Shown one piece after another: positions 8,205 to 52,464 of a stretch of 64,000 nucleotides of DNA. The DNA comes from Dastarcus helophoroides (taxonomy: Eukaryota > Arthropoda > Insecta > Coleoptera > Bothrideridae). The position numbers were made by a program, and so were the translations under genes. The notes under the pieces are model-generated. The model searched no databases and had not been told where the DNA came from. It saw only the letters and a program-made list of their open reading frames with translations. The stretch is taken from NCBI GenBank assembly GCA_028583605.1, contig CM053333.1:28995302-29059301 (forward strand), in the 5' to 3' direction. How positions within the stretch are numbered: position 1 is the first letter of the stretch; every line of letters starts with the position of its first letter.

Positions 8205-8410
8205 AAAATTGAAATAAAGAACTTGTCCCCTAAAACCAAGAAAGATTAAAAAACATAATAAAGGTTGCTCTAATGCGTTTCGACAGCCAAGCTGTCATCT
8301 TTAGTTTCTCTCCGAAAATGACAGCTTGGCTGTCGAAACGCGTTAGAGCAACCTTTGATGTTTTTTTAATATTTCTTGGTTTAAGGGGACAAGTTCTTTA
8401 TTTCTATTTT
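8205..8410. repeat. Palindromic PLE pLTR fragment (inverted repeat)
   Basis: Left arm about 8205-8302 and right arm about 8314-8410 are near-complementary, with a short centre of about 11 bases. Each arm holds the block ATGACAGCTTGGCTGTCGAA and then AGAGCAACCTTT, CTTGGTTT and GGGACAAGTTCTTTA. The same block follows the PLE gene near 8700-8745 and recurs alone at 26262-26340. This is therefore a tail-to-tail junction of two PLE terminal repeats. The hammerhead-like core is damaged in both arms (CCGAAAA and CTAAAGA where CTGAAGA is expected). Confidence 0.7.
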
Positions 8411-8412
8411 TG

Positions 8413-8443
8413 AAGATAACCAAGGACCAGTCCGTTCCATCAA
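8413..8443. repeat. Short dispersed repeat GATAACCAAGGACCAGTCCG
   Basis: A block of about 30 bases starting GATAACCAAGGACCAGTCCG directly abuts the palindromic pLTR. It recurs at about 57147-57177. It is probably part of the PLE terminal region. Confidence 0.55.
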
Positions 8444-8699
8444 ACAAAAATCAAAATAAAAGTTTCCCTATTATTTTTAAATGTATTTGTGGCTTTTTGG
8501 GTTATTTTTCGCAATTCCCGAAGAGAATTTAATTCTACCTGATAATCAAAATACTCCTTTAAAAAATTATGGTTATATCTGCGCCTGAAAAAATCATAAA
8601 AACATACACTGAAATGTTTAAATGCAAATAATTTTAAAACCGTTACTTGAGATACAACACTTGTACCCTGCAACCAAGAAAAATTAGAAAACTCAATAA

Positions 8700-8760
8700 A
8701 GGTTCCTCTAACGCGTTTTGACAGCCAAGCTATCATTTTCAGGAAGATACTAACACCTAA
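8700..8760 (-). ncRNA. Degenerate hammerhead-like motif in PLE terminal repeat
   Basis: On the minus strand the block reads CTGAAAATGATAGC, then TTG, then GCTGTC, then AAAACGCGTT. Compared with the better copy at 26262, CTGAAGA has become CTGAAAA and GAAA has become AAAA. The position downstream of the nuclease gene is where PLE hammerheads are known to lie. It is unlikely to cleave. Confidence 0.45.
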
Positions 8761-8884
8761 TCCTAAAATTTTCCCTTACATAATAAGAATATCCACTTCG
8801 TGCATGATCGACCGCATCTCAACGCGCATGCGCATCTAATTATATACGTCGCAATGTCAAAATTCCTTATCTATCAAGCTTAAC

Positions 8885-9958
8885 TATTTTTAACAGAGAT
8901 GAATGGCCTAAAGGCTCAGCGCAACCATTCATAAGGTTGTATCCAGTCTTATGGATGGCTAAGCTTTCACATGCATTTAACATATAATTCTTATTTACTA
9001 CTCTTAACAATTTAATATTATTATCTATCCTATGATCTTATCTAAAAGCATGTCGAGCCACACTTGACTTCTCTGTTCTTCCTTACTTCAAATGAGCCAA
9101 ATGCTCCTTCAGTCGGATTTTGAGAGATCGCCTAGTCTGCCCGACATACTTTTGAGGACAATGTTTACATAAAATTTAATAAATACCGGACTTGTCCGTT
9201 TGCTTTACTTTATCCTTTAAACTACCCAAAAACGAATTTAATTTGCCGTTGGAACTATAAACAAGCCAAAAGCCCTGTTTTCGTAAAATTTTACCCAAAT
9301 CATGCGTAAGCGAGGGTTTAAATGGAAGTGAGACGAACTTAAAGTTTTTGTTTTCATCAGCTCGGAAAGTTGTAATATTCACCAACTGACATTTAAATTT
9401 TTTCTCATTAATAATTTTATAAGTAATATTTGGATTGAACCCATTAACCTCAGCTATATGTTCAATTGTCTTTAACTCCTTTCCGAATCTTTCCCTTTTA
9501 AGAGGAAGACTGAGAAGGCGATGGGTAAGAAAGTTGAAGTTTGCCATTTTGTGTTGTATGCAATGGTTGAAGTCGGAAGTTATATAGCGGAAGGTACTGG
9601 AATCTGTCCTATATACGTCAAATTCTAATCTATTTTTATGCCTAATAACTAAAGTGTCCAAAAATGTCAATGCTCTTCCTTTCTCCAACTCTACGGTGAA
9701 TTTAACCGTTGGAAAACGTGAAATTAGTACATCAATGAAATCATCTAAATTTTGATTTTTTGTGTTAGAAATAGCAAAAATGTCATCTACATATCTAACC
9801 CATACCCTGGGAAACAAACTACATTCATTTTTAAGACGATTTTTTAAAACACTCATGAAGAGCTCAGCCATGAAAGGTGACAAAAAATTTCCCATGGCTG
9901 CGCCCTCAAGTTGTTCATAAAATTCCTTATTATTAATAACGAATTTTACCTTACCCAT
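8885..9958 (-). pseudogene. Penelope-like reverse transcriptase and GIY-YIG endonuclease
   Basis: PLEs encode an RT related to telomerase and, in the endonuclease-bearing types, a C-terminal GIY-YIG nuclease. The translation shows FYEQLEGAAMGNFLSPFMAE, then RYVDDIF with the catalytic aspartates, then LTFLDTLVIR, then the thumb region with FNPNITYKIINEKKFKC. The nuclease begins KSGIY, is cut by a stop at 9176-9178, and continues ILCKHCPQKYVGQTRRSL. Two further in-frame stops follow, then NACESLAIHKTGYNL with the expected glutamate. The open frame formally extends upstream to 10129, but its first 57 residues are antisense of the opposed PLE fragment, so I place the real boundary near 9958. It is dead because of stops, but well enough preserved to assign. 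Confidence 0.9.
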
Positions 9959-10091
9959 CGCCTTCTGAGTCTTCCTCCTAGTAAAGAAAGATATGGAAAG
10001 GAGTTGAAGATAATTAAACATATAGCTGAGGTTAATGGGTGTGATCCAAATATTGTTTATAAAATTATTAATAAGAAAAAATTCAAATGTC
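9957..10091 (+). pseudogene. Penelope-like RT fragment in opposite orientation
   Basis: The plus strand encodes FYLTHRLLSLPPSKERYGKE, then KHIAEVNGCDPNIVYKIINKKKFKC, closely matching the thumb region of the minus-strand PLE next to it. The two PLE pieces meet head to head. The match ends at about 10091, where the hammerhead-bearing repeat starts. Confidence 0.85.
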
Positions 10092-10137
10092 ACGTCTGTG
10101 AATTCTTTAGTACTTACTTGTCGGAACATTTGTTAGC

Positions 10138-10210
10138 ATTCGAGTCGGATATACCAAACTGACCAGATCTAACAAGATCGAAACCGGTCTTTGGTTTCCA
10201 AACTTCGAAT
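10138..10210 (+). ncRNA. Hammerhead ribozyme, first copy, core mutated
   Basis: Same fold as the copy 369 bases downstream, but the core reads CTGACCA instead of CTGACGA. The G8 equivalent at 10164, needed for catalysis in known hammerheads, is C. A change at 10146 also breaks one pair in helix I. GAAA and the ACCGGTC cleavage segment are kept. Predicted inactive. Confidence 0.7.
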
Positions 10211-10506
10211 CTAATAAATGTTCAAATTTATTGGTCTGTGCATTTGAATCCTTGTCTTCTGGGAAATTGTTCCTAGAGAGCAACTACTTCGCTAGATGGC
10301 AGTGTTTCAACTGTTGGTAGTTCAGCTACCTATGATTCACTATACACGCCTGGATGGCTGCATGAATTTGTAGTCTAGGTTGCATTCTACTTGCATACGA
10401 AATTGCTGGCGATGGCCATAGTTTCTCTATGGACCAATAAGTGATAGAGTCACACGCTTGACGTCTGTGAATTGTTTAGTACTTACTTGTCGGAACATTT
10501 GTTAGC

Positions 10507-10579
10507 ATTCGAGTTGGATATACCAAACTGACGAGATCTAACAAGATCGAAACCGGTCTTTGGTTTCCAAATTTCGAAT
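10507..10579 (+). ncRNA. Type I hammerhead ribozyme with complete core
   Basis: The core CTGACGA (10528-10534) is followed by helix II GATCT/AGATC with an AACA loop (10535-10548), GAAA (10549-10552), the palindrome ACCGGT forming a minimal helix III (10552-10557), and the cleavage nucleotide C10558 in a GUC context. Helix I pairs ACCAAA (10522-10527) with TTTGGT (10559-10564), then TTGGA with TCCAA, then ATTCGA with TCGAAT, separated by small internal loops. All invariant hammerhead residues are present. The minimal helix III is like that of known PLE and retrozyme hammerheads, which can work as dimers. Seen in sequence; activity is inferred. Confidence 0.85.
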
Positions 10580-10617
10580 CTAATATATGTTCAAACCTAT
10601 TGGTCTTTGCATTAGAA

Positions 10618-11564
10618 TAATAATTCTCTTACAAGGCTTTGCGGCGCTGTGGAAAGTAGCAGGTATAGCTTTTATTCCCTAAAGCCGAACAGGAGGAAGT
10701 TTGGCCAGCTTCAGCAGACTATTATTTTATTACTTTCAGTTAGACCAGAGTACACGTTTCACCGCAAATGCTGAGTTGACCTTGAGGAGCAGACCGTTTC
10801 TTAAAAACGTTTTCCTGATGCAGATTTTATTGAAACATTTCATGTTTTTGATGCATTATATTCTCTCCGGAAATCTACCTTAACAATGACTTACACATGT
10901 TTAGTAAAGCAAATTGTAGGGTGCAATCTCCTCAGCGGTGTTCTGTCGAAGAGAGAACAATAGAAGCTGTGCCTGTCACAGCAACGCCTAATAACTTAAA
11001 TCTATTCATCTTGAGTGTTGAATTCTAATCTCGAGAGAATTTAATCATCTGCAATCAAACACGTTTAATTATATCAATCGAATTGTAGTCAGAATAGAGC
11101 ATGCAACTTGGTATATCCCAATTGAGTGGTGCATCAAAGTTCTAAGAAGCAAAATCCTTATTCATAAACGCAATATTATTCACTAAAGGACATCAAAAAT
11201 TCACCTATTTTTTAAAGGATTTCTGCACTTGATAATTTCATATTGTAAATTTGCTCAGATTTGACCCTATTACAGTAGACAAATATTCACCGTGGAAACC
11301 TGTTAAAACAACATTTATAAATCCACACTAACAAAACAATTCGGACGTTTTATTCACGGCTTTATCGCTTAAGCCGATAATCATTAATTAACCAAAACCC
11401 AAACTTCAAAATTTTTCATGTCTGCATATAAAATGTTATCAGAAACAAGTGACACATGAGAACAGCAGTTTTTTCTCGAAAACATAATAATTAAAACTGA
11501 ATATTTGGTGCTGTTTTGAATGTGATTTCTAACACAATGATTTCACAGCAAAAGTAAATACACA
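10618..11564. other. No recognisable gene
   Basis: AT-rich DNA with only short open frames. I see no RT, transposase or repeat partner within the window. Confidence 0.55.
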
Positions 11565-11876: not shown

Positions 11877-13464
11877 TCAATAATCTTTCTTCAATAAATG
11901 TTCAAAATGTTGTCCATTTACTAACTGATAATAGCCCAAACGGAACTGAAACTCGTTTTGAATATTTTCAATTACTTTGGGGGAAATTAGTCTACACTCC
12001 TGTCTTATTCGTTCTTTCAACTCCTCAATATTTACAGGTTTGGTCATAACAATTTTGCTCTTCAAATACCCTTACAAGAAATAGTTCATAAGTGTTAAGT
12101 CCGGAGACCTGGATGGCCATTCAAAAGGTCTCCTTCTACCAATCCATCTGCCTGGAAATACATCATCCAGATACTCACGGACAGGCCTTGCAAAATAAGG
12201 AGGGGCACCGTCTTGTTGAAACCAGATGTTTCTATTCGGGATATCAGCTTCGACCGAATCAGGAAACCAAATAGCTGGATCAGGAATTAACTCCTCCTGC
12301 AAGAATTCTAAATATCCTGCCCCATTGAGATTTTCTTGGTAGAAAATTGGTCCTATAACTCGATCACCAACAATCCCTGCAGAATCCCTGACTTTCTCTG
12401 GATGTTGAGTGTGGCCTTCCTTCATCCAATGTGGGTTGTGTCTGCCCGGTAACGACAATTTTGACGGTTTACCTCATCATTTAACATAAACGTTAATTCA
12501 TCTGAAAACAGGATAGTTTCTATGCTTAGAATATAGTAGTATAGTAGATCCATCATTTGTTCACAAAACTGGAGTCTTCTATCAGGATCATCTTCTAAAG
12601 GTTCATGAAGAATTGTCATAGTATGAGGCTGAAATTTTTGTATTTTTGGAATTCTTGTCACTGAAGACTCGCTAATTTTGAGTTCCCTATCTATCTGACT
12701 AGTGGGGACATAAGGATTTCCTTGGACAGAGAGAAGTACATTATTTTTATCAGCTTTGACCGGATCAGGAAAATAAATAGCTAAATCAGGAATAATCTCT
12801 TCCTGCAGGATTCTAAATATCCTGCCCCATTGAGATTTCCTTGGAAGAAAATTGGTCCTTTAACCCAATCACCATCAATCCCTCCCTAAAAATTGACTTT
12901 CTCTGGATGTTGAGTGTGGCCTTCCCTTATCCAGTGTGGGTTGTTGTCTGCCCAGTAACGACAATTTTGATGATTTGGCTCACCATTTAACATAAACGTT
13001 GATTAATCTGAAAACAGGATATTTTCTATGCTTAGAACATTTTTGTCCAGTAGATTTGTTCACAAAACTGGAGTCTTCTATTCGGATCATCTTCTAAGAG
13101 TTCATGGGTGATTGCCATTTTATAAGGATGAAATTTTTGCATTTTCCGAATTCTTGCAACTGAAGACTACTAATTTCGACTTCCCTACCTATCAGGTAGT
13201 GGGGATATGAAGATTTTCTTGGGCAGAGAGAAGTACATTAATTTTGACATCTTCATTCTGACGGATATTACTTGTTCTTCTTAAATACCCATTTTCCCGA
13301 AACTGTTTTTCAATCTTGCTTACGGTACTTTGCGATATGGATGGTAAATCAGGATACTTCTCTCTTATTAAAAAACGAATAACTTCATTTTGTGTTCTTG
13401 TTCTATCTCCGTAGCCAATCATTATTAAACTTTCAATCTTGTGGGTTTCAGTTATGTACGGCAT
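11877..13464 (-). pseudogene. DUF4817-type mariner transposase
   Basis: The N-terminus on the minus strand (13464-13192) reads KIESLIMIGYGDRTRTQNEV, then SISQSTVSKIEKQFRENGYL, matching the DUF4817 helix-turn-helix region common to a large insect transposase family. The DDE core is spread over 12661-12072: ETILFSDELTF (first Asp), EKVRDSAGIVGDRVIGPIFY, NIWFQQDGAPPYFARPVREY (second Asp), FPGRWIGRRRPFEWPSRSPD with LTLMNYFL (third acidic residue). The C-terminus (12065-11877) reads NIEELKERIRQECRLI, then FQFRLGYYQLVNGQHFEHLL. Frame breaks separate these blocks, and a partial duplicate of the core lies at 12753-13240. The family mobilises DNA by cut and paste; this copy cannot. Confidence 0.88.
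12247..13240. repeat. 506-bp tandem duplication inside the transposase gene
   Basis: 12247-12752 is repeated at 12753-13240 with scattered changes and small indels. Landmarks AGCTT..GACCG..TCAGGAAA, CTCTGGATGTTGAGTGTGGC and CAGAGAGAAGTACATTA occur in both at the same spacing. The second unit is the more decayed. Confidence 0.85.
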
Positions 13465-13595
13465 TTTGGTAGATTTTTTAATAAATGGGGTTTCTCACTA
13501 AACGACGAATTAACAGCCTCTCCGATCAATACAATACTACTCTTATTATTTGTTTTTATTAAGTTTTCCCGACACCTTACGGTATAAGGGAATTG

Positions 13596-18737: not shown

Positions 18738-19250
18738 ATTTTATTTAACATTTCTAGACCCAGTTTAGAAATATGTAAATTATGTAGTTCAATGCTGGAA
18801 GGGGTATTAGCCCTCGGAGTAGTTGTTTCTTGTGGATTGGGCTTCAAATATTTAAATTTTTACCACCGTAAATTATTGATGAAACGCCTATTCATGTTAA
18901 AAATTTTTTATGTATTGAAAATATTGTATTTTTAAGTATTTTCTTTCTCATTTTTCCCTATCTATGTTATGCACTGCTGACGAGCTCAAATCAAAGCGAA
19001 TATTCTTATATTTTCATAATTTATTAAAAAAACAAATTTTAGTATCTAATTTTGGCCTTTTATTTTTCATTTTTCCTATTCTATATAAAATAAACTAACC
19101 TATTTTTTGTCAACTGTCATAAGGTGACGTTTTAAATAAATTTACATATCACGTAGTCAGTCATATTTCAAAAACTGTTTTAGAATATTGTCAACAAACA
19201 ATAAAAATTTGAATATTTTCAAGCTGGGTCGTGGAAATGTTAAATAAAAT
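18738..19250. mobile_element. Small element with ATTTTATTTAACATTTC inverted ends
   Basis: Left end ATTTTATTTAACATTTC (18738 on) and right end GAAATGTTAAATAAAAT (to 19250) are inverted copies, continuing about 45 bases through GACCCAG and AAATAT blocks. The interior is non-coding and is shared with 46138-46580. The same end sequence forms the perfect hairpin at 52321-52464. A non-autonomous DNA element is the simplest reading; no target duplication was identified. Confidence 0.65.
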
Positions 19251-20242
19251 GAATAAACTTAATGTTTCCGATCAATAAGAGTCCACCATGAAGGAGAATA
19301 AAAAGGTATGATTACATTTTTTATTGCACCACTTAAGACTGAACGCACTTTTTGGAAGGAATAAATAAGAGGACAGATCGGTGTGCATCACAACTAATGT
19401 AAAAATGGACTTCGGTTCTACAGACGAATTTTTTCATGATTTAATATCATTGACACCGAAAACGTTGTGGAATGTTTAAATTTTGTTGAGTTTTTATCTT
19501 TAATAAAGTTTAATAGTTATGAATTTAATATCATGTTATGAAGCCATTTCTATGTTACTGTTGTCTCATGATGTGGAAGTATTACGTATCAAACGAACAG
19601 AATTAGATGATTTTTTGACCATGTTGTGTACATTTCACTTACATGTTACAAATAATCAGTTAAGGGAATTGTTACATAAACTTATTGAAGCACTATTGAC
19701 AAAGTCCAAGGGGGTTGATGATTGTCTAGATGGAGTACTATGGGTACTTCATATGGCACTTATAACTTAACTAGTGGTAACAGTGTGTCAAATGATGGTG
19801 GCCTCAGTATTGGTGTAGGACGGCCAAAATATGACTTTTCTTATGGACAGTTAAAGTTACTTCGAACTTCAGGTTTCACTTGGCAAAGAATTGCAAATTT
19901 ATTAAATATATTTATACCTACTCTACAAAGGCATCGACAACATTTATTATTTGTTGATGACACGTAATCTTTAATAAATACAGAACTAAGTAATGAAATA
20001 TGGGAAATTTTAATATCCACTTCTGGAGTAGAAGAAGTCTACGTAATGGAAAGTTTAAGATATCAAAAATTAATGTTTCACGATGGAGAGTAACACAACT
20101 ACTGCACCATATAAATCCTTTAAGAATAAATTTAAGAAGAACACATGCTGCATGCAGAAGAGCTTACAAAGTTAAAGGACCAAATTATCTATGTTATGAA
20201 GATCCAAATATTTTTTGCTAAAGTATTTCTACACAAATCTTA

Positions 20243-41063: not shown

Positions 41064-43767
41064 CAAAAAATAGGCGTAACATCTTTGCTGAGAATTAAAA
41101 AAAAACCGTTTTGGCAACAAAGACTTGAAAAAACTATTAACAATATTAGAAAAGAATTGGGGCAGCTAACAGCATACAGAAAAACTAAATCGCCATCAAA
41201 GCGATTAAAATCACGAGTGAAAAAACTTTTCCAAAAAATCAAGACTCAAGATAATCATCCAAACCATCAACATCAATTGGACGACTACATGGATGTACTT
41301 AAACAAAAACTAAAGGGCCAAAATCAAGAGGCTTACTCGATACATAAAGTGTACAAAAAGAAAACAGGAAAACTACCTATTTCAGAACAATCAAAAACTA
41401 TTTTATAGGCAGCTTAATGGTACCACAATTACAGATGCCCAACCAAAACCCAACAAACAATAACTTACCGAGTACTGGACATCTTTATGGTCAGTTCCTA
41501 AAGAACACAAAAGAAATGTTCACTGGATTAGAACAGAACAGAGAGAAATTCATACCCCACAAATGAACTTCGATTTAGCAATTAGTGAAGATGAAGTGAA
41601 TATCGCGATGAAATCTACAAGCAACTGGAAAGCGCCTGGAGTTGACAAGATACAGAACTTCTGGTATAAAAAATTTAACAGTTTGCATGTCAACCTAGCA
41701 GAACAATTTACATATGTTATTAACCATTCTAAAGAAACCCCAACTTTTCTCACATTAGGATCTACGTTTATGTTACCAAAAGGCCAACAAACACATGATC
41801 CAGCCCAATACAGGCCCATCACATGTTTGCCAACTTTATACAAAGTATTAACAGCCTGTATTACTAACCGCATCTATAAACATGTGACTGAACATAACCT
41901 GCTGACAGAAGAACAAAAAGGATGCAGGAAAAATCACCAAGGATGTAAAGAACAGTTGGTCATTGATTCGGTTATACTTAAACAAGTGCAAAGGGAAAAA
42001 AGTAATTTGCATACCGCCTTTATAGATTATAAGAAAGCCTTTGACAGCGTCCCTCATTCCTGGCTTGTACATGTATTACAAATATACAATATTCACCCTA
42101 CAGTAATAGCATTTCTGGAGAATGTCATGACACATTGGCGAACAAACTTAAATATATATACTGACAACGAGATACTCAGTACGGATGAGATCTGCATACG
42201 AAGAGGCATATTCCAAGGAGATTCCTTAAGTCCGTTGTGGTTTTGCCTGGAACTCAACCCGCTGTCCACAATGCTAAACAGTACTAAGTATGGATACAAG
42301 GTAAAAGGAGGTAGGCAAGTTAGCCATACAATATCACACCTCCTCTACATGGATGACATTAAACTCTACGCAGGAAATGAGAAAGAAATACGCAGCCTTA
42401 TTAATATCACTCATGAATTCCCCACAGACATTCATATGGATTTTGGCCTGGACAAGTGCAAAATATTAAATATTGAAAAAGGTCATTTAATAAACGGCGA
42501 TGCTGTACTCTCCAATAGGGAAATTATAAAGGCGATGGAACATGGTGAAACGCACAAATATTTGGGATTTCAGCAAGCACGCTTATTAGAACAGAAACAG
42601 CTGCTACTTAAATCTCAACTAAACTCAGTAAACCTGATCACATGAATTAACACATACGCCATCCCAGTTCTTACATATTCTTTTGGAATTATCAAGTGGA
42701 CGAAAACTGATTTGGAAAACATCGAAAGGCAAACGCGCAGTTTAATGACTAAATTTAAAGACCATCACCCAAAGTCATCCACGATCAGAATTACTCTCCC
42801 TAGAAAGCAAGGATGCTTAACCTTCACAACAGCCAGATCAATAAATTAAGAGAATTCTTCTGCAGTAAATCCTTAACAAGTAACCTTCATGCCACAATTA
42901 AATTAGCTGACAAAAACTGCTCCACTTTGAATTTTGCTGACGAAAGAGGTGATTTGACAGTAATCTCCGATAGTGAAAAACTGCAACAATGGGCAAGTAA
43001 AGAACTCCATGGGCGACACTATTACGACGTAAACCAGCCACACATAGATAAGGAAGCGTCAAACAGATGGCTCAGTGATGGCAAACTACTACCTGAAACT
43101 GAGGGATTCATGATTGCCATACAGGACCAGGTCATAAGCACCAATAATTACAAGAAATTTATTATTAAAGAAAAAGATACCAACTCAGACTTATGCAGAA
43201 AATGTCAGCAAAAATCTGAAACAGTCCAGCACATTACATCTGGCTGCTCTCATCTGGCTAATACTGATTATTTACTTAGACATAAGTGTGTAATATCATC
43301 CACCAAAAATTGGCCATTAAATACGGATTCCTCAACACGTACGCGCCATACTATAAATACGAACCACAAGCGGTACTTAACAACGAATCTTTTAAACTTT
43401 ATTACGACCGAACAATTATCACCGACAGAAGAGTAATGAACAATCGACCGGACATCGTAGTAATGAATAAAAAGAAGAAAAATATACAACTGGTCGATGT
43501 AACTGTTCCAAAGAACAACAATTCAATGGAAAAATACCGGAAAAAAAAGACAAGTATGCAGAATTAGCATTAGAAATGGGACAAATCTGGCACTCTAACA
43601 GAGTAGAAATAATACCAGTAGTGGTGTCGTCAACTGGACTTATTCCTAAAAACCTTCATAAGGGCATAGATACACTAGGACTACATAAGAACACATACGT
43701 TGATATCCAAAAGGCTGTTATATTGAATACCTGTTGCATTGTTAGAAAGTTTTTAAGCACAAACTAA
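41064..43767 (+). pseudogene. R4/Dong polyprotein: RT and restriction-like endonuclease
   Basis: N-terminal basic region KKPFWQQRLEKTINNIRKEL (about 41100-41160), frame break near 41385, YRQLNGTTITD. The longest open part is 41563-42645 (360 codons) with NWKAPGVDKIQNFWYKKF, QYRPITCLPTLYKVL, AFIDYKKAFDSVPHSW (catalytic Asp), RGIFQGDSLSPLWFCLELNP, LLYMDDIKLYAGN (catalytic pair), FGLDKCKILN and HKYLGF. A TGA at 42643-42645 is followed in frame by YAIPVLTYSFGIIKWTKTDL. A frame break near 42810 leads to 42813-43436 with the CX2C-H-C zinc motif (LCRKCQQKSETVQHITSGC). A break near 43290 leads to the endonuclease NNRPDIVVM...IQLVDVTVP (about 43440-43510). A last break near 43550 leads to 43576-43767. 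With all catalytic residues visible and only four to five lesions, this is a relatively young dead copy. Confidence 0.92.
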
Positions 43768-46023: not shown

Positions 46024-46119
46024 GTATATATATATAGATGACAATATTCTGAAACATTTTTTAAAATGTGACTACCTAATATCTACATTTATTTAAAACG
46101 TAATCTCATGACAGTTGAC

Positions 46120-46580
46120 AAAAAATATGTTAGTTTAATTTACTGGATCAAGCTTTAAATATTTAAATTTTCACCAGCGTAAGCTATTGATGAAAGGTCT
46201 ATTAATGTTAAAATTTTTTATGTATTTCAATTTATTATTTTTTAGTACTTCTTCCTCATTGTTCCCTTTTCATGTTATGCAATGCTGAGAGCTCAAATGA
46301 GAGCGAAACATCGATGTCCAGTGCTACAACCCTTTTTTATATTTTCATAATTTATTTAAAAAATGTTTATGTCTAATTTTGGTCTTTTATATTTCATTAT
46401 TTTCTCTATTCTATGTAAAATAAACCAACCTTCCTTTTTTTTGTCAAATGTCATGAGGTAACCTTTTTAAAGAGATTTAGATATTACGTTGTCATATTTC
46501 AAAAAATGTTTCAGAATATTTTCAACTTCTATTAACAAAAAATAAACATAATATCTCCGACCAATAAGAGTCCATCATGA
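46120..46580 (+). repeat. Copy of the 18738-19250 element interior and right flank
   Basis: Shares AAATATTTAAATTTTCACC, TGTTATGCA..GCTGA..GAGCTCAAAT, TTTTCATAATTTAT, and ACCAATAAGAGTCCATCATG with 18830-19300. The inverted ends are absent. Match to both interior and flank suggests a longer parent element. Confidence 0.65.
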
Positions 46581-47438
46581 AGAATGTTTAAACATTGTTT
46601 GCTGAAACACCATATTATAATGAATAATTTGAGAGAAAATAGATACATCACCGCGATAGATAAACATTAACAAATATTTCGTAATTATTTAGAGCCTTCC
46701 CAGTTATTATAATTATTGTTTTACTTCTAGTTTCAAATTTTGCTGAAAGGGCAGAATAGAATAAAATGACATCGATAAAGTGGCTACTGAATACAATAAT
46801 ATTGCGCTGACAATAAAATAAACAAAGAGCATATAACTTATTTCTCGCACAATATTTGCGGGGAAAGTTTGAAACTTTTGTAATTATCATATTTTACGCT
46901 TTTGCGGTTTTATCAAAGAAGTTTGCAAATTCCCTATGTTAATTATATTGATATTTATGGTGTAACTCAAATTACATTAATTATAAGTATATAATAGCAG
47001 TTTTGTCACTAAATTAAAATGATATCTTTCGTACGCTTTTATTCGAAAATTATCCTTGGAATTAAATATTGATAACGATAAAAGTTTCTACCAACTGAAT
47101 ACCCGCCCAAGACAAATTATGAAAAGAAAAACTAATTTGTAATAATACATCTTCATTACCGCTACTTGCTATGTGTTATTATTCATTATGCAATGAAGAA
47201 CTTCTATTTCCTATCTATTTTGATAAAACAATATTGAAAATTTCATCATTTCGATCTGCTCAATGTGCAAGAATTATATAATTATTAGAATTTCTTAAGA
47301 ACAAAGATTTTTAGAGTCTACCCTTTCGACGCTTTCATAGTTCAATAGAAACCTTCATTACTTAATGGAAACGTTTATTTACTGTTGCAGAGAGACAACA
47401 TCAAAATTACCCAATATATAAGAAACTAAAACTGTGAA

Positions 47439-47441
<3 letters not shown>
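46581..47441. other. No recognisable gene
   Basis: AT-rich sequence without supported features. Confidence 0.5.

Positions 47442-47480
<39 letters not shown>
47442..47480. repeat. (TA)n microsatellite at 5' side of truncated PLE
   Basis: A TA run ends about 20 bases before the first PLE codon at 47501. Confidence 0.93.
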
Positions 47481-47491
<11 letters not shown>

Positions 47492-47500
47492 TTAATAGAT

Positions 47501-48277
47501 TGGTATCAAAAACCAACATCATCCAACAGATTCATTCACTACAACTCGGATCATTCGCAATCTATAAAATTAAATTTCATTAAACAAATGAAACACAGAA
47601 TACAAACAATTTGTCACACATCTTTAATACAAAAGAATCTATTGAAACTTCAAAGTGAGTTAATTGAGAACTCGTACCCAAAAGGACTAACAAGCAAAAT
47701 CCTATTCAGCCTGGAAAGCAACAACAGACCTCAAGTGCCCCAAAGAAAAACACAGCAGAACAGCACAGAAATAACACCAACATCAGTTTCCATAACTCAA
47801 ATAACAGGACTCACGAATAACATAATCCAAGCTCTAAAAAATGAAAACATCAAGATAACAACCAAAAGCAGTTACAAAATTGGAAATTTACACACAAAAC
47901 TCAAAGACAAAATACCAACACAACTACAATCAAATGTCATCTACTCGATAGAGTGTAATTGTAGACAAGTATACATAGGACAAACTTCACAACTTCTAAA
48001 GAGCAAATTAGCATGCCACAGAAGTGACATTGCAAAACAGGTGAACAGGTGTGCTCTAGCTATCCATACTAATGAAAATAACCATGCAGTAAATTGGGAC
48101 TCAGTTCAAGTATTAACACAGGAAAACAACTATAAAAAAAGATTATTTATGGAGATGTTTTACATTAATAAACGAGAAGCGAGAATAAATAGGAAAACTG
48201 ACACAGGGAACCTCAGCAACATATACACCTACCTATTGACCTTTCCTTATCTTGACCTGTATGATGGACCATTATAA
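47501..48277 (+). pseudogene. PLE RT thumb and GIY-YIG endonuclease, open but truncated
   Basis: The frame is continuous from WYQKPTSSNRFIHYNSDHSQ at 47501, directly after two stops at the junction, to TAA at 48275-48277. SIKLNFIKQMKHRIQTICH and ENSYPKGLTSKILFS are the conserved PLE region after the RT palm. The GIY-YIG domain follows: VIYSIECNCRQVYIGQTSQL (YIG conserved, GIY replaced by VIY), LKSKLACHRSDI where an arginine is usual, CALAIHTNENNHAVNW, RLFMEMFYINK (catalytic Glu) and TDTGNLSNIYTYLL. The RT palm with its YxDD box is missing, so the piece cannot act alone, but the open nuclease frame implies a recent insertion. Confidence 0.88.
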
Positions 48278-52200: not shown

Positions 52201-52320
52201 GTATTTGTTATGCTATATTGCTATATCTGAGGACTTTTATGTAAAATATAACAGAATGGAATTGCAATATGTAATAGTTTATTCTTCATGGTAGACCCTT
52301 ATTGACCGGAAATATTATGT
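49206..52320. other. Gene-free stretch
   Basis: About 3.1 kb of AT-rich sequence. Open frames such as 49910-50191 have no recognisable domain. I see no transposon ends or RNA genes. Confidence 0.5.
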
Positions 52321-52464
52321 TTTTTTTCAATTTATTTAACATTTCTTCGGCCCAGTTTGGAAATATTTAAATTTTTATGGTTTGTTTAGAAAATTGTCAA
52401 CAAACCATAAAAATTTAAATATTTCCAAACTGGGCCGAAGAAATGTTAAATAAATTGAAAAAAA
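52321..52464. repeat. Perfect 66-bp inverted repeat (hairpin)
   Basis: Arms 52321-52386 and 52399-52464 are exact reverse complements with a 12-base loop. The arm sequence (ATTTAACATTTC, GGCCCAGTTTGGAAATATTT) matches the ends of the element at 18738-19250, so it looks like a fold-back derivative with the interior lost. Left of it, CATGGTAGACCCTTATTGAC is the inverted form of a sequence flanking the other copies. Confidence 0.92.

What the first reader, a model, noticed from the sequence alone, without database searches (positions are those of the whole stretch)
10092..10617. Retrozyme-like tandem unit (369-bp period) with a hammerhead in each copy, beside a PLE fragment
A 369-bp unit occurs about 1.4 times. 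Each copy has a hammerhead fold at the same offset, and the second copy has every invariant core residue and a long three-part helix I. Two cleavages in a transcript would release a 369-nt RNA with ends suited to circularisation. Animal retrozymes are known as small tandem non-coding repeats with type I hammerheads, thought to be mobilised by PLE reverse transcriptase. Here the unit lies directly against a PLE RT fragment. This may be an undescribed retrozyme family, or an unusual PLE terminal repeat.
Basis: partly seen in the sequence, partly recalled or inferred. Interest (0 to 1): 0.88.

Follow-up and report, generated by a model that had tools for sequence, protein, structure and literature searches.

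The report
Self-cutting RNA element with Penelope footprints
In an insect genome, a small non-coding repeat that carries a self-cutting RNA is inserted in the same peculiar way as the Penelope retrotransposons of that genome, which suggests that Penelope enzymes copy and paste it.

Summary
The finding is real. Window 10092-10618 holds 1.43 copies of a 369-bp non-coding unit with a type I hammerhead (HHR) in each copy. Copy 2's core is intact; copy 1 lost the invariant G8, so this locus should not release a 369-nt RNA. The host genome (539 Mb, unnamed, beetle-like) has 534 exact HHR-core matches (control 0). They form tandem arrays of about 377-bp units, and 0 of 20 arrays examined had Penelope-like (PLE) protein sequence within the 8.5-9.7 kb fetched. 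This is an animal retrozyme family, not a PLE terminal repeat. The main result is how it inserts. Of 39 other sites, 20 are head-to-head inverted pairs; 17 have one outer end at unit site A and the other at site B, none has two alike, 3 have an undefined end (minor fragments add 3 same-site pairs). Target duplications peak at 12 bp. The genome's own PLEs behave alike: 13 of 13 read have one X and one T end, with duplications of 11-14 bp (one 18). The window locus joins a canonical PLE end (8647) to a canonical retrozyme end (10618). This is strong indirect evidence that PLE machinery mobilises retrozymes, proposed but not shown in the papers seen. No RNA evidence was available.

The parts
10092..10249 (+). 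First copy of the 158-bp repeated part of the retrozyme unit (unit positions 1-158)
   Evidence: D1, 94% identical to 10461-10618, spacing 369
10250..10460 (+). Rest of the 369-bp unit, present once here; pairs in part with the repeated part in the predicted rod
10461..10618 (+). Second copy of the repeated part; its right edge (unit position 158) lies at the terminus 'site A' seen at other genomic sites
10141..10212 (+). Type I hammerhead of copy 1, core broken (position 8 is C at 10164); cleavage position would be after C10189
10510..10581 (+). Type I hammerhead of copy 2, invariant core residues present, helix III = palindrome ACCGGU; predicted cleavage after C10558
10238..10257 (+). Unit position of terminus site A (unit 147-166) in copy 1
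10385..10406 (+). Unit position of terminus site B (unit 294-315), the other recurrent 3' end of genomic insertions
8647..9948 (-). Antisense PLE fragment (RT to GIY-YIG region), left outer edge at 8647 = canonical PLE end X
9949..10091 (+). Sense PLE RT fragment, head-to-head with the antisense one and directly abutting the retrozyme
8205..8445 (.). Separate short head-to-head PLE-end insertion: left edge at end X, right edge at end T (tail)

Best explanation
The unit is a new family of animal (non-LTR) retrozyme. Its transcripts carry a weak-helix-III type I hammerhead in each repeat, which in tandem (dimeric) form would cut out a roughly 369-377-nt, strongly self-paired RNA that can be circularised (inferred). 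The GIY-YIG endonuclease and reverse transcriptase of Penelope-like elements of the same genome then insert it (inferred from shared footprints). Both target strands are cut with a stagger of about 12 bp. cDNA synthesis starts on one strand at internal site A and on the other at internal site B, runs around the circular or tandem RNA for up to several laps, and the two cDNAs meet head to head. The window locus is best read as one such event in which the cDNA on one side was copied from PLE RNA, and on the other side from retrozyme RNA and then PLE RNA.
For: Shown by sequence: a multi-copy tandem family; 81 of 99 full-length HHR segments in 39 loci keep CUGANGA. 3' outer edges fall at A (27) or B (26) in 53 of 59 cases; 5' edges do so in 7 of 59, about what the width of the two windows (47 of 369 positions) gives by chance. 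Head-to-head main insertions are 17 A/B, 0 A/A, 0 B/B and 3 with an undefined end, of 20; the 19 loci fetched last give 11 A/B and 1 undefined of 12. TSD of 10 bp or more in 17 of 39, against 3 of 1482 mismatched flank pairs, mode 12 in that range. PLEs of the same genome: 13 of 13 sites read have one X and one T end; TSD 11-14 (one 18); 156 mismatched pairs reach at most 9. Architecture: H17 to A is 56 nt in the retrozyme; H17 to X is 63 nt in the PLE. Window: of 39 other PLE-end places listed, 33 start exactly at the position of 8647 and 37 within 8644-8649, so 8647 is a true PLE end; 10618 is site A. The circular 369-mer is far more stable than shuffles (z -6.6 and -6.4).
Against: No RNA data: cleavage, circles and expression are untested. 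The retrozyme and this PLE family share no sequence beyond short chance-like matches, and their end motifs differ (GTGCATTA and CTTGCATA against TTTCAA and CATCAAA), so another PLE family could be the helper. Among minor fragments in the first 20 loci, 2 B/B and 1 A/A head-to-head pairs exist. TSDs of 10 bp or more are found in only 17 of 39, and in only 4 of 19 single-orientation insertions. The composite locus has no significant TSD (best 8 of 12; chance 0.31). Its PLE arms differ more (21 of 154, gaps included) than its retrozyme copies (9 of 158; Fisher p 0.02), which a single event copying identical templates does not predict. The 39 loci are the best-scoring of 3671 first-look candidates, not a random sample, and the end windows were set after one search had shown match ranges for all 40 sites, so the later loci are not a fully blind test. 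PLE pairs were picked because they looked head-to-head; only their end types and TSDs are a test. LINE insertions were not examined as a control.
Confidence: 0.75

Rival explanations
1. Unusual PLE terminal repeat (pLTR) or remnant of an internally deleted PLE: the unit is simply a part of PLEs.
For: It abuts a PLE here. PLEs of this genome carry HHR-like motifs at a similar distance from their end, and the insertion pattern is the same. A distant origin by reduction from some PLE is not excluded.
Against: 0 of 20 arrays have PLE protein within the fetched 8.5-9.7 kb. Only short matches (14-25 bp) of the unit in 4 of 11 other PLE loci. The unit is free-standing, with TSDs of its own in 17 of 39 sites. 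This PLE's own ends X and T are different sequence.
Confidence: 0.1
2. Retrozyme mobilised by a LINE-type (non-PLE) reverse transcriptase; inverted pieces come from twin priming.
For: Reverse transcriptases that are not PLE-like by eye lie in the window (41464-42645, RVT_1). TSDs of about this length occur in LINEs too (recalled).
Against: Twin priming (recalled mechanism) gives an inverted piece from inside the element. Here the outer edge of the inverted piece is itself a recurrent 3' end, and of the opposite kind to that on the other side, in 17 of 20 head-to-head main insertions. That pattern is shown by the PLEs here (13 of 13 read). LINE insertions of this genome were not examined as a control.
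Confidence: 0.08
3. Ordinary satellite DNA: tandem copies spread by unequal exchange; the HHR is a passenger.
For: Tandem arrays exist and the main copies are 88-97% identical to the query, not recent.
Against: Dispersed short arrays of one to about five units with recurrent 3' ends, inverted partners and, in 17 of 39, TSDs; 81 of 99 HHR segments keep the core.
Confidence: 0.04
4. The window locus is two independent insertions (a PLE, then a retrozyme) brought together by chance and a deletion, although the family as a whole is still PLE-mobilised.
For: No significant TSD across 8647-10618. PLE arms and retrozyme copies differ in divergence (p 0.02). PLE next to retrozyme was seen only here among the 21 array loci checked, so coincidence is possible.
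Against: Both outer edges are canonical termini (8647 PLE X; 10618 retrozyme A), and no PLE protein match resumes to the right of the retrozyme.
Confidence: 0.45

Closest known systems
Metazoan non-LTR retrozymes (Cervera and de la Pena 2020, PMC7229834; first two of three parts of the Results, the Discussion and passages seen)
   Same: Type I HHR, tandem repeats of 150-450 bp, GC below 50%, dispersed arrays, TSDs longer than 4 bp, highly self-paired predicted circle; weak helix III with palindromic loop as described for axolotl HHR_Amex1.
   Different: Another sequence (not compared with published retrozymes; one exact pattern each found nothing in the viral and prokaryotic collections; other eukaryote genomes were not searchable). 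Two recurrent 3' termini and head-to-head A/B insertions; the words 'inverted' and 'head-to-head' do not occur in that paper's main text.
Penelope-like elements: pLTR, inverted pLTR and tail (A. vaga, PMC3846280, passages; Anolis PAc, PMC11167929, passages)
   Same: Head-to-head inverted partner, tail on one of the inverted ends, internal start of reverse transcription at two adjacent sites, both strands cut; TSDs of 8, 9 and 10 bp mentioned for A. vaga.
   Different: No ORF of its own, free-standing; the two ends are about 150 nt apart rather than about 38 nt as in this genome's PLEs.
Rfam Hammerhead_HH9 (RF02275)
   Same: Helix layout, core, 4-bp helix II with 6-nt loop as aligned by Infernal.
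   Different: Scores of 27-41 bits, below the gathering score of 52; shorter helix III.
Minimal PLE hammerheads (Cervera and de la Pena 2014; Lunse 2017: not held, known only through passages of citing papers)
   Same: Palindromic or missing helix III that needs a dimer; tandem arrangement.
   Different: The retrozyme HHR has a long three-part helix I with internal loops; the PLE's own motif here has a short helix I (read by eye).

Membership tests
Metazoan non-LTR retrozyme | Type I hammerhead in each unit | tested here: met
   core CUGANGA intact in 81 of 99 segments
Metazoan non-LTR retrozyme | Short tandem unit of 150-450 bp, many dispersed copies | tested here: met
   369 bp here; 27 of 31 spacings 375-384 bp elsewhere; 40 scored of 3671 candidates, 534 exact core matches
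Metazoan non-LTR retrozyme | Non-coding, GC below 50% | tested here: met
   No stop-to-stop frame of 80 aa or more lies within 10092-10618; two PLE frames run in from the left and end at 10132 (minus) and 10162 (plus); GC 0.40
Metazoan non-LTR retrozyme | TSD longer than the 4 bp of plant retrozymes | tested here: met
   10 bp or more in 17 of 39 sites against 3 of 1482 mismatched pairs
Metazoan non-LTR retrozyme | Strongly self-paired unit-length RNA | tested here: met
   circular MFE -116.1 against -83.6 +/- 5.1 for 150 shuffles; 2 of 255 sampled window stretches are as stable; one of six control stretches has z -4.1
Metazoan non-LTR retrozyme | No LTR, PBS or PPT | not tested
   -
Metazoan non-LTR retrozyme | Self-cleavage and circular RNA in tissues | not testable with these tools
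   No RNA data
PLE terminal repeat (pLTR) | Flanks a PLE ORF | tested here: not met
   0 of 20 arrays; only short matches in 4 of 11 other PLE loci
PLE-type integration (works like) | Head-to-head partner with the two different 3' ends on the two sides | tested here: met
   17 of 20 head-to-head main insertions A/B, 3 undefined; minor fragments include 2 B/B and 1 A/A; PLE control 13 of 13 X/T
PLE-type integration (works like) | Same TSD length as PLEs of the genome | tested here: met
   commonest length 12 for both, where a TSD of 10 bp or more was found: 17 of 39 retrozyme sites, 13 of 13 PLE sites

The most novel reading that the evidence does not exclude
Window 8647-10618 is a fossil of one integration in which a Penelope-like reverse transcriptase wrote its own RNA into one side of the cut and retrozyme RNA into the other, switching from retrozyme to PLE RNA at 10091/10092. 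More generally, animal retrozymes are satellites of PLEs that mimic the PLE replication origin: a hammerhead about 60 nt upstream of a first reverse-transcription start (A or X) and a second start further on (B or T). Each insertion uses one of each, on opposite target strands.
Probability: 0.5. Interest if true: 0.82.

Novelty: new member of a known kind. Interest (0 to 1): 0.68.

Why it matters
Which enzyme moves animal retrozymes is open. The 2020 paper (PMC7229834) and later reviews (PMC7761336, PMC11722881; passages seen) name LINEs or PLEs, with PLEs as the strong candidate because both carry type I HHRs, occur in tandem and co-exist. Here the insertions themselves carry the PLE signature (12-bp duplications; two recurrent 3' ends, one on each side, head to head), next to PLEs of the same genome that show it too. 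That turns a suggestion into a footprint that can be tested in any genome with retrozymes, and it names two RNA sites to test in a purified PLE system. It also suggests a use for the hammerhead: making unit-length or circular templates for a reverse transcriptase that starts inside the RNA.

Tried and rejected
Pattern scans for the HHR core, one in viral contigs and one in genome contigs, found nothing; the search for related loci for the PLE protein in viral contigs found no relative. Rfam at gathering threshold finds nothing in the window. Many sub-threshold Rfam miRNA matches were not pursued; in the window several lie on AT repeats or on the 8205-8410 palindrome. Simple adjacency to a PLE as evidence was dropped: it was seen only at the window locus. 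A TSD for the composite locus was sought and not found. Fold stability alone was rejected as proof: the right flank 10619-10987 also scores z -4.1. No consensus of any element was built; the window copy served as query for the retrozyme maps.

Rows dropped before counts: only the longest insertion of each of the 39 loci was counted; shorter fragments of the first 20 loci are. One search used end windows 2-3 positions wider; no counted edge falls in the added margin. In one search, HHR segments not covering query 6-80 were left out. In one search the 10 PLE pairs are the first ten that I picked from the minus/plus pairs visible (I noted 22), plus three loci (L031, L035, L036) in which I had seen both ends.

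Full report
What is in the window. Two copies of a 158-bp sequence, 94% identical, lie 369 bp apart at 10092-10249 and 10461-10618. Each contains a hammerhead of Rfam family HH9 on the + strand, at 10141-10212 and 10510-10581 (29.7 and 35.5 bits; E 1.1e-4 and 1.4e-6 in 3 kb; gathering score 52). A strict descriptor (CUGANGA, helix II, GAAA, helix III, helix I of at least 4 bp) has one hit in the window, in copy 2, and 3 hits in 749 random windows. The nine differences between the copies include 10164 C against 10533 G, which removes the invariant G8 from copy 1 (the hammerhead numbering is recalled). In both copies helix III is the palindrome ACCGGU. The best fold of the isolated copy-2 motif does not form the core (-26.3 against -22.7 kcal/mol with the core held open). 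Published type I hammerheads with such a helix III, in newts and axolotl, cleave well only as dimers (PMC7229834, Results part 2). With copy 1 broken, at most one cleavage is expected here.

The unit as one RNA. The segment between the two cleavage positions, 10190-10558, folded as a circle, has MFE -116.1 against -83.6 +/- 5.1 for 150 dinucleotide shuffles. Helix I of the hammerhead continues into a rod that pairs the repeated part with the unrepeated part (10226-10237 with 10431-10442), so the 369 bases behave as one predicted structural unit. Only 2 of 255 sampled window stretches of that length are as stable. The part outside the HHR alone has z -3.7. Of six control stretches five have z between -1.9 and 1.2, but one, the right flank 10619-10987, has z -4.1. 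So this is supportive, not decisive.

The family in its genome. The genome search answered: G000 has 538.9 Mb in 50 contigs and the window lies at C9:28995302-29059301. The 526-bp query gave 83 matches, which I group into 40 sites (the 40 scored of 3671 first-look candidates), at 77-100% identity, mostly 88-95%, many as tandem arrays. An exact pattern for the intact core has 254 + 280 matches, its reversed control 0 + 0. I fetched all 39 other sites. Of 31 spacings under 700 bp between neighbouring cleavage sites, 27 are 375-384 bp. Of 99 full-length HHR segments, 81 keep CUGANGA. Rfam HH9 matches copies in 5 of 5 loci scanned at E up to 0.01, five copies in L014 (27.4-40.5 bits). tblastn of 64 PLE proteins found PLE sequence at the window locus and at none of 20 arrays with 8.5-9.7 kb of sequence; the other 19 arrays were fetched with too little flank for this test. 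The host looks like a beetle: the nearest named PLE proteins, at 45-58% identity, are mostly from Aromia moschata, one from Molorchus minor; nothing else was done to name it.

How it inserts. I mapped each array on the unit. The first 20 loci suggested that 3' edges fall at two places, A (unit 147-166) and B (294-315): 44 of 49 edges of all blocks, with 2 of 49 for 5' edges. With all 39 loci, counting the longest insertion of each, 53 of 59 3' edges are at A (27) or B (26), against 7 of 59 5' edges, about the chance share of the two windows. Twenty main insertions are head-to-head inverted pairs. Seventeen have A on one side and B on the other, none A/A, none B/B, and three have one undefined end. 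Equal chance would give 17 of 17 mixed with p = 7.6e-6. The 19 loci fetched after the windows were set give 11 A/B and one undefined out of 12; one search had already shown their match ranges, so this is not a blind test. Among all 15 head-to-head pairs of the first 20 loci, smaller fragments included, 10 are mixed, 2 B/B, 1 A/A and 2 have an undefined end (two of the mixed ones, both in L018, look like copies of one another). Exact target duplications of 10 bp or more flank 17 of 39 insertions (13 of 20 head-to-head, 4 of 19 single) against 3 of 1482 mismatched flank pairs; the commonest length in that range is 12. The A edge reads ...GTGCATTA and the B edge ...CTTGCATA, with variants.

The PLEs of the same genome. 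A protein search with the window's PLE found 147 places scored of 3044 candidates, many as minus/plus neighbours. Their 3' region has two edges: X (...TTTCAA in sense) and T, about 38 nt further on (...CATCAAA). In 13 of 13 sites with both edges read, one edge is X and the other T, with duplications of 11-14 bp (one of 18), most often 12; 156 mismatched pairs reach at most 9. These sites were chosen as head-to-head pairs, so only edge type and duplication are tested. This is the arrangement described for Penelope in A. vaga: direct and inverted pLTR, an optional tail on one of the inverted pLTRs, head-to-head most frequent (PMC3846280, passages). Anolis PAc protein cuts and extends both strands and starts reverse transcription at two adjacent internal sites (PMC11167929, passages). 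The PLE here also carries a hammerhead-like motif (CUGAAGA, an extra U, a 6-bp helix II, GAA, palindrome ACGCGU, a 4-bp helix I) that Rfam does not report in 11 PLE loci and L080. I read it by eye; an exact core string occurs in 8 of 12 PLE loci, two of which (L038, L039) overlap. Its cleavage position lies 63 nt before X and 101 nt before T; the retrozyme's lies 56 nt before A and 207-214 nt before B in the copies measured.

The window locus again. The PLE piece left of the unit ends at 8647. Of the 39 other places listed in the main block, 33 begin exactly at the position of 8647 and 37 within 8644-8649 (the other two at 8626 and 8666). So 8647 is edge X, and what lies left of it is not part of the element. 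The right edge, 10618, is A. Between them stand antisense PLE (8647-9948), sense PLE (9949-10091) and sense retrozyme. This is what a head-to-head PLE insertion would look like if one cDNA had begun on retrozyme RNA and switched to PLE RNA. Against a single event: no significant duplication (best 8 of 12 at the right place, chance 0.31), and the PLE arms differ by 21 of 154 while the retrozyme copies differ by 9 of 158 (p 0.02), though the templates need not have been identical. I put the single composite event at about 0.5.

What is shown and what is inferred. Shown: the repeat, the hammerheads by sequence, the family, its independence from PLE bodies in 20 of 20 arrays checked, the two-edge head-to-head insertions with 12-bp duplications, and the same in PLEs. 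Inferred: self-cleavage, circular RNA, and that PLE protein does the copying. The helper may be a different PLE family, since the edge motifs of retrozyme and this PLE differ and they share no more than short matches. LINE insertions were not examined as a control.

Comparison with what is known. By the criteria of PMC7229834 that could be tested, this is a metazoan non-LTR retrozyme. That paper and PMC7761336 propose PLEs as helpers from shared features and co-occurrence; the words inverted and head-to-head do not occur in the first, and in the second 'inverted' occurs only in a reference title. None of the titles and abstract openings listed by my ten literature searches mentions a two-edge insertion pattern of retrozymes; the full texts were not all read, and subscription papers, including the 2014 and 2017 PLE hammerhead papers, are not held. 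The element is therefore a new member of a known kind, with evidence, new as far as I could see, on how that kind moves.

Noticed in passing
window 46036-46586; copies at 18833-19293 and 52281-52327: A second HHR-bearing repeat family, unrelated in sequence. Copy 46144-46586 has an HH9-like relic at 46270-46341 (25.4 bits, E 0.05 for the window, one base missing from the core) and an inverted partner at 46036-46143; copy 18833 keeps CUGACGA but lost the 3' half. Genome: 40 scored of 3308 candidates, most right edges at query 383 or 398, which may be ends or alignment breaks. It may be another PLE-related element with a two-ended pattern.
   Followed up: partly
window 10619-10987: The right flank of the unit folds unusually well (circular z -4.1) but has no Rfam family at the gathering threshold and no repeat copy in the window.
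   Followed up: no
window 8205-8445: Short palindromic PLE insertion made only of the two ends, X on the left and T on the right: a minimal head-to-head product.
   Followed up: partly
L018 7072-7613: Tandem array of four units of about 130-147 bp that contain only unit positions 94-239, i.e. a shorter relative of the retrozyme with the region just around and downstream of the cleavage site.
   Followed up: no
PLE loci L031, L035-L040, L080: PLE hammerhead-like motif with one extra U after CUGAAGA that Rfam does not report; worth a dedicated covariance model.
   Followed up: partly
window 47438-48277: GIY-YIG part of a second, distant PLE family (26% identity to P0004; best Pfam match DUF637 at E 0.2, not meaningful).
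   Followed up: partly
window 12072-13494, minus strand: Decayed transposase-like reading frames, mariner-like by eye only; no Pfam match for the two frames tested.
   Followed up: no
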